Shown here in pieces: positions 60,896 through 63,316 of a DNA stretch of 64,000 nt. Position 1 is the first letter of the stretch, and every line of letters starts with the position of its first letter. A model generated the notes under the pieces. That model was not told the origin of the DNA, ran no database searches, and worked only from the letters and a program-made list of their open reading frames with translations. Source of the DNA: Candidatus Poribacteria bacterium (GTDB lineage Bacteria; Poribacteria; WGA-4E; WGA-3G); the NCBI GenBank assembly GCA_009841255.1, contig VXMD01000013.1, positions 43,431 through 107,430 of the forward strand, read 5' to 3'. Made by a program: the position numbers and the translations under genes.

Positions 60896-60936
60896 CCCTA
60901 TCGCTTTTGGGCATATGACAGCCAGCTACCAAAGAC

Positions 60937-60965
60937 TTGACACGCCCCACAATTTCTGATACAGT
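60937..60965 (+). promoter_or_regulatory. Promoter of the UGA-containing redoxin gene, leaderless geometry
   Basis: TTGACA (60937-60942), 17 nt, TACAGT (60960-60965). The predicted start falls at about 60972, the ATG itself, and no Shine-Dalgarno is visible. Confidence 0.5.
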
Positions 60966-60971
60966 GTCTCC

Positions 60972-61469
60972 ATGTCACGGAAAAACAAGGTTCTCAATAT
61001 CGGTGATACTGCGCCGCTATTCACACTCCCATCGCATCAACGTGGTGAGGTATCCCTTGAAACGTATCACGGGGTGCAACACGTCATCCTCACCTTTTTC
61101 CGAGGGACGTGGTGACCGAACAGTCGCCGCCAGTTGGCAGCAGTGCAAGAAAACGTTGAAGACTACGCAGCATATACAGCGATCCCACTCGCCATCGCGG
61201 GACAGTGGCCCCGTGAACTCCGAGGCTATGCCGAGAAAAACGGCATTGCCTTCCCGCTACTGGTAGACAAAACACGGAGCGTTATCAAAAGTTACGGTGT
61301 CTATCATTGGCTCAGTTTAGAGGCTTACAATATTGCGCGTCCGGCAACATTTATCATTGACAAAACAGGGCTTATTAGATATATGTATATCGGTTCGCAT
61401 CAATTTGATCTCGCAAAACAGACGGAAATCCTTGAATCCCTGAAAGACATAGCGGCACTTGAAAAATGA
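60972..61469 (+). CDS. Peroxiredoxin-like (AhpC/TSA) protein, candidate selenoprotein with in-frame UGA
   Basis: 165 residues if the TGA at 61113-61115 (codon 48) is read as selenocysteine. Upstream part: 'MSRKNKVLNIGDTAPLFTLP' and 'HVILTFFRGTW', then UGA, then 'PNSRRQLAAVQENVEDYA' and the rest of a thioredoxin-fold redoxin ('AIPLAIAGQWPREL', 'GIAFPLLVDKTRSVIKSYGV', 'ARPATFIIDKTGLIRYMYIG'). In relatives this slot is Cys in RGTWCPxCRRQL, the peroxidatic residue. The frame is otherwise uninterrupted, and the second family Cys is Ser here. Terminates at TGA 61467-61469. Alternative: a nonsense mutation (TGC or TGT to TGA). Confidence 0.75.
61113..61141 (+). promoter_or_regulatory. Candidate bacterial SECIS element after the UGA
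   Basis: The stem GCCGCC (61126-61131) / GGCAGC (61136-61141) encloses loop AGTT (61132-61135). The pairing includes one C-A mismatch, and three G-C/C-G pairs flank the loop. The loop starts 16 nt after the UGA and its second base is G. Bacterial SECIS elements are described as having a G in the first two loop positions and a loop 16-37 nt from the UGA. The stem is short, so the match is suggestive only. Confidence 0.45.
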
Positions 61470-61471
61470 TT

Positions 61472-61499
61472 TTGACTTCTCATCGAAATATGATATAAT
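61472..61499 (+). promoter_or_regulatory. Promoter of the riboflavin genes
   Basis: TTGACT (61472-61477), 16 nt, TATAAT (61494-61499), giving a transcript start near 61506 and a leader of only about 34 nt. That is too short for an FMN riboswitch. Confidence 0.65.
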
Positions 61500-61539
61500 T
61501 TAAAGAAAGCAGACTTTCAAGGACAGATAACACATCGCT

Positions 61540-62643
61540 ATGGACGAAATACATAGAGCCTTTATGCAACGTGCGCTGGATTTAGCACGGCGGGCAAAAG
61601 GACGGACGAGTCCGAACCCTCTCGTCGGGGCGGTCATTGTCAAAGAGGAAAGGGTTATCGGTGAAGGGTATCACCAGAAAGCAGGAACACCCCACGCCGA
61701 AGTCCATGCGCTTAACGCCGCGGGTGAAGCCGCCAAAGGTGCGACGCTTTATACAAACCTTGAACCGTGTTGTCATTGGGGGCGGACGCCTCCCTGCACA
61801 GAAGCACTGATTCGAGCCGGGATCGTGCAGGTCTACGTCGCGGAAGTCGATCCGAATCCGAGTGTCGCCGGCAAAGGGGTTCAACGACTCCAAAATGCGG
61901 GCATAAACGTCCATGTAGGTGTCTGCAGGCAAGAGGCGTCTGACCTAAACGAGGTGCATCGGAAATACATTCAAACTGGCAAGCCGTTTGTGATTCTCAA
62001 GACCGCGATGAGCCTTGACGGGAAAATCGCCACTGTTTCTGGGGAATCGCAATGGATTACGTCCGAGGCATCACGGCAGCGAGGGCATGAAGTTCGGGAC
62101 GCCGTCGATGCGATCCTCGTCGGCAGAGGAACAGTCGCACGTGATAACCCCGCGCTGACGACACGACTTCAGAACAGAGAAGGGCAAGACGCAATCCGGA
62201 TTGTGTTAGATTCGCACGGAAGAACACGCGCGGACGCACGCATTTTTAACCTTGATAGTGAATCAGGCGTTATCGTGGCGGTGACGCCAGAGGCACCCGC
62301 TGAAAACATCGATGCCCTCGAAAAGGCTGGTGCGGAGGTGATAATCGTACCAGTAGCACACGGAAACCGGGTCTGTTTCGAGCGTTTGATGGCGATATTA
62401 GGGAAACGTGAGATAACAAGCGTCCTGATAGAGGGAGGTAGCGAAATCAACGCTTCAGCCCTCGCCGCTGGTATCATCGACAAGGTTATGTGCTTCATTG
62501 CCCCCAAACTCATCGGTGGGCAGGATGCCGTTGGACCGATCGGCGGTTTAGGGATCCGTAGTTTGAGTGATGCAAGGAACCTCCGACGCGTCAGTATTAC
62601 ACCGATGCCTGAACACGACTTTCTAATTGAGGGGTATCTATAG
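61540..62643 (+). CDS. ribD: Bifunctional riboflavin deaminase/reductase RibD
   Basis: 367 aa. N-terminal deaminase domain with 'PNPLVGAVIV', 'HAEVHAL' (His52, Glu54) and 'EPCCHWGRTPPC' (zinc Cys77 and Cys86), then the C-terminal reductase domain ('KTAMSLDGKIAT', 'SVLIEGGSEINAS'). It performs the deamination and sugar reduction of the pyrimidine precursor, steps 2 and 3 of riboflavin synthesis. The stop is one nt before the ribE ATG. Length and motifs are typical. Confidence 0.96.
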   Translation: MDEIHRAFMQRALDLARRAKGRTSPNPLVGAVIVKEERVIGEGYHQKAGTPHAEVHALNAAGEAAKGATLYTNLEPCCHWGRTPPCTEALIRAGIVQVYVAEVDPNPSVAGKGVQRLQNAGINVHVGVCRQEASDLNEVHRKYIQTGKPFVILKTAMSLDGKIATVSGESQWITSEASRQRGHEVRDAVDAILVGRGTVARDNPALTTRLQNREGQDAIRIVLDSHGRTRADARIFNLDSESGVIVAVTPEAPAENIDALEKAGAEVIIVPVAHGNRVCFERLMAILGKREITSVLIEGGSEINASALAAGIIDKVMCFIAPKLIGGQDAVGPIGGLGIRSLSDARNLRRVSITPMPEHDFLIEGYL

Positions 62644-62644
62644 A

Positions 62645-63316
62645 ATGTTCACTGGGATCGTCGAGGAACTCGGAACGATTAGAAGCGTACAGGTTAAACC
62701 TCAAGGGGCTATCCTTGAAATTCAGGCGGATGACGTTCTCAGTGATGCGAAGGTCGGCGACAGTATTGCTATTGATGGTGCGTGTCTTACGATCCGTTTC
62801 CTCACATCCGAAACATTCACTGTGGATATTTCCGCGGAGACCTTACGCCGCACAACCTTGGGTGAACGAAAGGTAGGAGAACACGTCAATTTAGAGCGTT
62901 CACTCCGGCTCAGTGATAGATTAGGCGGACACCTCGTCCTTGGACACGTCGATGAGGTCGCGACGATTCGTACGTGGAAAGATGAAGGGGATGCCTCTGT
63001 GATGCAAGTGACAATGAGTCGGACCACTAAACCCTACATCGCATACAAAGGATCCATCACCATCGACGGTGTGAGTCTAACTGTATCAAATGTACACGCG
63101 GATGCCTTTGAAGTTACGCTGATCCCGCATACAAAGGACGTTACGACCTTCGGGACGAAACGGGACGGTGCAAAGGTGAACCTTGAAGTTGACATTGTGG
63201 CGCGTTATCTCGAAACACTCCTGAAAAATAGCGAAGATAAGACGGAGTGGCGCAAACAGTCCTCTTCTGAAACCCTTAATTTGAACTTTTTAGCGAAACA
63301 CGGCTATATCGATTAA
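62645..63316 (+). CDS. ribE: Riboflavin synthase alpha subunit
   Basis: 223 aa from ATG 62645; an earlier in-frame ATG at 62627 lies in ribD and gives no better start. Two lumazine-binding domains in tandem: 'MFTGIVEELG' opens the protein, with 'GDSIAIDGACLTI' in the first half and 'GSITIDGVSLTVSNV' in the second. It dismutates two 6,7-dimethyl-8-ribityllumazine molecules to riboflavin. Lies between ribD and ribB in the usual synteny. Confidence 0.95.
   Translation: MFTGIVEELGTIRSVQVKPQGAILEIQADDVLSDAKVGDSIAIDGACLTIRFLTSETFTVDISAETLRRTTLGERKVGEHVNLERSLRLSDRLGGHLVLGHVDEVATIRTWKDEGDASVMQVTMSRTTKPYIAYKGSITIDGVSLTVSNVHADAFEVTLIPHTKDVTTFGTKRDGAKVNLEVDIVARYLETLLKNSEDKTEWRKQSSSETLNLNFLAKHGYID

What the first reader, a model, noticed from the sequence alone, without database searches (positions are those of the whole stretch)
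60972..61469. Candidate selenoprotein: peroxiredoxin-like protein with UGA at the catalytic cysteine
One TGA interrupts an otherwise intact redoxin frame exactly at the peroxidatic Cys of RGTWC. A bacterial-SECIS-like stem-loop follows with its loop 16 nt after the UGA. Upstream and downstream parts read as one protein of normal length. The family's second Cys is Ser, so this would be a one-Sec enzyme. Selenocysteine peroxiredoxin-like proteins are known, so the class has precedent; its presence in this lineage is the interesting part.
Basis: partly seen in the sequence, partly recalled or inferred. Interest (0 to 1): 0.9.

Follow-up and report, generated by a model that had tools for sequence, protein, structure and literature searches.

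The report
Selenocysteine redox enzyme in Poribacteria
A small thioredoxin-fold redox enzyme of sponge-associated Poribacteria uses an in-frame UGA to insert selenocysteine at its active site; 66 of 67 copies keep the UGA and the other has cysteine, so it is a real but fairly conventional selenoprotein.

Summary
The frame 60972-61469 has one internal TGA (61113-61115) inside RGTW-U-PNS. The window is from a Candidatus Poribacteria genome that holds selA, selB, a tRNA-Sec with UCA anticodon, and a selD that itself has an in-frame TGA. Of 67 orthologues in the phylum, 66 have TGA at exactly this codon and one has TGT (Cys). The protein part after the UGA is under strong purifying selection. Codons just after the UGA show synonymous constraint that fits a bacterial SECIS: the loop G and U are fixed in every copy. 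I regard selenocysteine insertion as practically certain, though not shown by experiment.

Two corrections. First, the Sec is not at the classical peroxidatic position. It takes the first position of the thioredoxin CxxC motif, where peroxiredoxins have Thr. Ser51 sits where peroxiredoxins have the peroxidatic Cys, and the peroxiredoxin Arg is Pro124, the thioredoxin cis-Pro position. It is a peroxiredoxin-fold protein with a thioredoxin-type UxxS site. Second, the stem pairs well but covariation is weak. Prx-like selenoproteins are a known class; this looks like a new, lineage-wide member.

The parts
60972..61469 (+). Selenoprotein gene: AhpC/TSA-redoxin family protein of 165 residues with Sec at residue 48
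   Evidence: frame; PF00578 E 3e-27; 67 orthologues; AlphaFold pLDDT 89.6
61113..61115 (+). In-frame TGA read as selenocysteine (Sec48), first position of the UxxS motif
   Evidence: 66/67 orthologues TGA, 1/67 TGT; column is Sec or Cys in all 29 aligned sequences, UxxC paralogues included
61122..61124 (+). Codon of Ser51, which aligns with the peroxidatic Cys of classical peroxiredoxins; Cys in the UxxC paralogues
61124..61143 (+). Bacterial SECIS-like stem: 61126-61131 with 61136-61141 (61128/61139 mismatched in this copy), mismatch 61125/61142, outer pair 61124/61143
61132..61135 (+). Apical loop A-G-U-U, 16 nt after the UGA; G61133 and U61134 are fixed at two synonymous sites
   Evidence: Gln CAG 66/66 and Leu TTR 66/66; GU in 57/57 distinct sequences against 12.5% synonymous background
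61341..61343 (+). Codon of Pro124, at the cis-Pro position of thioredoxins and the catalytic-Arg position of peroxiredoxins
   Evidence: Invariant in eight diverse orthologues, over 90% with paralogues; alignments; PMC2757866
59753..60895 (+). Upstream neighbour hemW (radical SAM heme chaperone), ends in an ordinary TGA
   Evidence: TIGR00539 323 bits, cut-off 205
61540..62643 (+). Downstream neighbour ribD
   Evidence: TIGR00326 371 bits; downstream of the gene in most Poribacteria loci
62627..63316 (+). Riboflavin synthase gene ribE, following ribD
   Evidence: TIGR00187 214 bits

Best explanation
The gene encodes a selenoprotein. SelB with Sec-tRNA(Sec) recognises a short stem-loop just after the UGA and inserts selenocysteine at residue 48, giving a 165-residue redoxin of AhpE/PrxQ-like fold (comparative sequence evidence; insertion itself not shown by experiment). 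[quoted passage not shown] the second motif position is Ser51 (shown by alignment and model). Inferred mechanism: a one-selenol enzyme in which the Sec selenolate attacks a disulfide or a peroxide, and the resulting mixed selenenylsulfide or selenenic acid is reduced by an outside thiol, since no resolving Cys is in the motif. Thiol-disulfide or peroxide reduction by this route is most likely; the substrate is not known.
For: Same codon TGA in 66 of 67 orthologues (others 57-89% identical to the window's), Cys (TGT) in the 67th, no TAA or TAG. Genome has selA (519 bits), selB (353 bits), tRNA-Sec (78 bits, anticodon TCA) beside selB, and a Sec-type selD with motif CAG-U-ASKL. selB is in 76 of 85 Poribacteria; both genomes without any homologue of the protein lack selB, one of them 95% complete. 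pN/pS is 0.18 after the UGA and 0.24 before. Synonymous constraint at codons +3 to +7: Ser AGY 66/66, Arg CGY 65/66 twice, Gln CAG 66/66, Leu TTR 66/66; the lowest-pS 8-codon window of the gene starts at +3. The stem has on average 5.56 of 7 pairs, above the synonymous-shuffle mean in every sequence. UGA is an ordinary stop elsewhere: 26 of 67 orthologues end in TGA. Site assignment. Fold.
Against: Covariation for the stem alone is weak: 79.9% of cells paired, covariation score reached by 27 of 500 shuffles, one pair unpaired in 13 of 32 sequences, the window's own copy included. Mean MFE z against synonymous shuffles is only -0.89. No Rfam SECIS match. Catalysis and substrate are inference. 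A MAG could hold foreign contigs, though the gene lies before ribD as in relatives.
Confidence: 0.92

Rival explanations
1. The TGA is a real stop and the gene is a pseudogene, or a split gene giving a short N-terminal peptide and a separate 111-aa C-terminal product.
For: TGA is a stop in bacteria; a TTG-started 111-aa frame 61134-61469 exists.
Against: 66 of 67 orthologues keep TGA and none has TAA or TAG; purifying selection is at least as strong after the TGA (pN/pS 0.18) as before (0.24); no other stops or frameshifts in 67 copies; the one exception is Cys.
Confidence: 0.02
2. A sequencing or assembly error changed a Cys codon to TGA.
For: A single-base change from TGY to TGA would suffice.
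Against: The same TGA is in dozens of separately assembled MAGs and single-contig chromosomes.
Confidence: 0.005
3. UGA is reassigned genome-wide, or read as Cys, Trp or Arg by a near-cognate tRNA, not as Sec.
For: The frame is open under any such code.
Against: hemW and 26 of 67 orthologues of this very gene end in TGA; the window-wide readthrough scan gives only this gene. Full Sec machinery is present, and the SECIS loop is fixed at synonymous sites.
Confidence: 0.02
4. It is a selenoprotein, but works as a 1-Sec peroxidase with the Sec as the peroxidatic residue.
For: The fold is closest to PrxQ/Bcp4 (Z 25.6) and AhpE, a 1-Cys peroxiredoxin (Z 24.7); PF00578 match. A Sec one helical turn earlier could still reduce peroxides.
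Against: In alignments without gaps around the active site, Sec48 faces the peroxiredoxin Thr and Ser51 the peroxidatic Cys; the PxxxT Pro is Arg44 and the catalytic Arg is Pro124. The own genome's classical Sec-peroxiredoxins have the UGA three codons later (L094).
Confidence: 0.25

Closest known systems
Prx-like thiol:disulfide oxidoreductase selenoproteins (PF00578; UxxC, UxxU; PMC2398784, PMC13188914)
   Same: Same Pfam family, Sec at the thioredoxin-type first position, bSECIS just downstream, Cys homologues.
   Different: Second motif residue is Ser (UxxS). The orthologue group is 58-90% identical to the window's protein, the UxxC paralogues of the same phylum only 33-41%.
AhpC/TSA family selenoprotein with UxxS (PF13911 / cd02970; first reported from the Olavius algarvensis symbiont; listed in PMC9312934 and PMC13188914)
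   Same: UxxS motif, AhpC/TSA relatives, symbiont of a marine invertebrate.
   Different: Our protein scores 12.5 bits to PF13911 against a cut-off of 27 and matches PF00578 instead.
Selenocysteine peroxiredoxin PrxU / Prx with TxxU (NF040737, PF00578)
   Same: Peroxiredoxin fold, Sec enzyme.
   Different: There the Sec replaces the peroxidatic Cys (TxxU); here U is at the T position. NF040737 score 29 bits, cut-off 270.
AhpE of Mycobacterium tuberculosis and PrxQ/Bcp4 (1xvw, 3hjp)
   Same: Fold: Z about 25 over 150 residues.
   Different: Active-site Pro, Thr, Cys, Arg are Arg44, Sec48, Ser51, Pro124 here.

Membership tests
Bacterial selenoprotein gene | In-frame UGA conserved in relatives and replaced only by Cys codons | tested here: met
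   66 TGA, 1 TGT in 67 orthologues
Bacterial selenoprotein gene | SelA, SelB, SelD and tRNA-Sec in the genome | tested here: met
Bacterial selenoprotein gene | bSECIS: 3-9 nt loop, 4-16 bp stem, G in the first two loop positions, 16-37 nt spacing, MFE -7.5 or lower (model quoted in PMC13188914) | tested here: met
   Window: loop AGUU, spacing 16, 5 pairs with one mismatch, MFE -8.7 over 48 nt. At the edge of the model for spacing and stem length.
Bacterial selenoprotein gene | Selenium in the protein | not testable with these tools
   Needs 75Se labelling or mass spectrometry
AhpC-TSA (PF00578) | Score above gathering cut-off | tested here: met
   95.3 bits against 26; all 29 aligned members match at E 0.001
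Classical peroxiredoxin | PxxxT/SxxC (or U) motif with the peroxidatic residue at the last position | tested here: not met
   RGTWUPNS: Sec at the T position, Ser at the C position
Classical peroxiredoxin | Catalytic Arg at the thioredoxin cis-Pro position | tested here: not met
   Pro124 faces the Arg of AhpE and PrxQ (PMC2757866)
Prx-like UxxC/UxxU selenoprotein | UxxC or UxxU motif | tested here: not met
   UPNS (or CPNS) in all 67 orthologues
AhpC-TSA_2 (PF13911) UxxS selenoprotein | PF13911 score above cut-off | tested here: not met
   12.5 bits against 27
PrxU (NF040737) and SelL-related redox protein (NF040769) | Score above NCBI cut-off | tested here: not met
   29.1 of 270 and 37.6 of 120 bits

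The most novel reading that the evidence does not exclude
A new selenoprotein subfamily, fixed across the sponge-associated order of Poribacteria: a peroxiredoxin-fold protein with a thioredoxin-type one-selenol UxxS site that works with an outside thiol or partner protein, and one of the client genes behind the unexplained enrichment of selA and selB in sponge symbionts.
Probability: 0.5. Interest if true: 0.55.

Novelty: new member of a known kind. Interest (0 to 1): 0.45.

Why it matters
A standard gene finder would stop this protein at the UGA or start it downstream of it, so a conserved redox enzyme of a phylum of uncultured sponge symbionts is likely to be misannotated. I found no paper in the held library on selenoproteins of Poribacteria, while enrichment of SelA and SelB in sponge symbionts has been reported without naming the selenoproteins in the passage I read (PMC5649159). 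The gene gives a named, testable client. The natural Cys orthologue in G028 gives a ready control for what selenium adds.

Tried and rejected
Rfam scan at E 10 over 60900-61600: no SECIS. RNAalifold on the orthologues preferred a weak helix of 61110-61114 with 61128-61132 (-2.5 kcal/mol) over the downstream stem; a fold of the window stretch that includes the UGA puts the UGA inside a stem. The downstream stem was therefore tested by pair counts and synonymous shuffles. The 2007 paper on the Olavius symbiont is not held, so the sequence of its UxxS protein could not be compared. Pseudogene, split gene, sequencing error and code reassignment were considered and rejected (see rivals). Literature search for Poribacteria with selenoprotein gave nothing.

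Full report
Where it is. The window lies in contig C13 of a 5.73-Mb, 96% complete genome. Its close relatives are recorded as Candidatus Poribacteria MAGs (record titles). The gene stands between hemW and ribD-ribE, and ribD and ribE follow it in most relatives with enough flank.

The observation. The frame 60972-61469 has one in-frame TGA at 61113-61115 and then runs to its own stop. A scan of the whole window for frames opened by reading TGA through gave four candidates; three look like two adjacent genes or an upstream non-coding stretch, and only this one reads as one protein (judged by eye). UGA is thus an ordinary stop elsewhere, and 26 of the 67 orthologues of this very gene end in TGA.

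Sec machinery. The genome has SelA (519 bits), SelB (353 bits), a tRNA-Sec of 78 bits that ARAGORN reads with anticodon TCA, next to selB, and SelD (361 bits) with TGA in the motif CAG-U-ASKL.

Relatives. A search of all 85 held genomes of the phylum gave 67 orthologues, the window's included; the others are 57-89% identical to it. 66 have TGA at the same codon; one, L056 (G028, the same place as L129), has TGT. There is no TAA, TAG or other sense codon. G028 still has SelB and SelA, so this is a local change and not loss of the trait; it keeps the loop codons CAG TTG, which suggests Sec to Cys. The distribution agrees: the two genomes with no homologue at all, G003 and G004, have no selB, and G004 is 95% complete. 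Outside the phylum I found one homologue, in a Gemmatimonadota MAG (L156); it also has TGA, and its genome has selA. Its motif is U-K-R-S, and it may be a transfer or a stray contig. That collection scan needed one of two short conserved peptides, so more distant homologues could be missed.

Selection. Against the window copy, mean pN/pS is 0.24 before and 0.18 after the TGA. The part after the UGA is thus translated and kept.

SECIS. Loop AGUU at 61132-61135 starts 16 nt after the UGA; stem 61126-61131 with 61136-61141 has one C-A mismatch in this copy. It fits the bSECIS model quoted in PMC13188914, at its edge for spacing and stem length; fold energy over 48 nt is -8.7 kcal/mol. The best evidence is at synonymous sites. 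Gln54 is CAG in 66 of 66 full-length copies and Leu55 is TTG or TTA in 66 of 66, although this gene family uses CAA for 44% of its Gln and CTN for 70% of its Leu codons; these two choices place the G and U in the loop. Ser51 is AGY in 66 of 66, and the two Arg third bases are pyrimidines in 65 of 66 each. GU occurs in 57 of 57 distinct sequences, where synonymous shuffling gives 12.5%; pairs in the stem exceed the shuffle mean in every sequence, by 2.0 sd on average. The lowest synonymous divergence of any 8-codon stretch starts at +3; a second low stretch is at the start codon. The sequences are related, so these counts are not independent. Covariation proper is weak: two pairs with changes on both sides, covariation score reached by 27 of 500 shuffles. 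Most UxxC paralogues looked at have perfect 7-bp stems with G-first loops (read by eye), so the weaker stem is a peculiarity of this gene.

What the protein is. It matches PF00578 and PF08534. AlphaFold gives a confident model, pLDDT 89.6, with helix 49-60 starting right after residue 48. Nearest folds are Sulfolobus Bcp4 (Z 25.6) and M. tuberculosis AhpE (Z about 24.6), at 23-29% identity. Profile alignments without gaps around the active site place RGTW-U-PNS on PxxF-T-xxC: Sec48 faces Thr, Ser51 faces the peroxidatic Cys, and Pro124 faces the catalytic Arg. The same register is seen inside this genome, where two tandem PrxQ-type genes carry UGA three codons later (L094). PMC2757866 describes this contrast: peroxiredoxins are TxxC with Arg in place of the cis-Pro, thioredoxins are CxxC with cis-Pro. 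Hence the active site is thioredoxin-like on a peroxiredoxin fold.

How it works. Shown: Sec or Cys at residue 48 in all, Ser51 and Pro124 kept in the orthologues. Inferred: Sec48 as selenolate at a helix N-terminus attacks a disulfide or peroxide; without a second thiol in the motif, an outside thiol must finish the cycle. Substrate and partner are unknown. Linkage to riboflavin genes is conserved in many relatives but may be only a shared operon.

Known or new. Prx-like selenoproteins with UxxC, UxxU, TxxU or UGC are catalogued (PMC2398784, PMC13188914). A UxxS AhpC/TSA selenoprotein is listed under PF13911/cd02970; our protein fails the PF13911 cut-off, but I could not compare the sequences. 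I file it as a new member of a known kind. The lineage part is new as far as the held library goes, with SelA/SelB enrichment in sponge symbionts already reported (PMC5649159).

Noticed in passing
G000:C82:102389-103216 (loci L094, L095): Two tandem PrxQ/Bcp-type peroxiredoxin genes, each with TGA at the classical peroxidatic position (FYPKDFTGG-U-TT and FYPRDFGRG-U-TA).
   Followed up: partly
G000:C34:11959-12348 (L092); relatives L089, L091: UxxC Prx-like paralogues with TGA (FYRGGW-U-PFC and others) and perfect 7-bp stems with G-first loops after the UGA; many more TGA-bearing paralogues across the phylum.
   Followed up: partly
G000:C31:125360-126283 (L019): selD with in-frame TGA in CAG-U-ASKL, a Sec-type selenophosphate synthetase.
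   Followed up: yes
G000:C50, about 156364-158686 against 151989-154311 (L011, L012): An exact 2.3-kb duplicate that includes the N-terminal part of selB, joined to what reads by eye as the end of EF4/LepA; probably an assembly artefact.
   Followed up: partly
L156 3001-3582: The Gemmatimonadota homologue has an insertion of about 30 residues after YGVYHW that resembles its own following stretch (NILRPVEFFIDK before SIARPATFIIDK), like a partial internal duplication.
   Followed up: no
L056 (G028), same place as L129: The only Cys orthologue keeps CAG TTG and the stem after its TGT codon, a trace of a former SECIS.
   Followed up: partly
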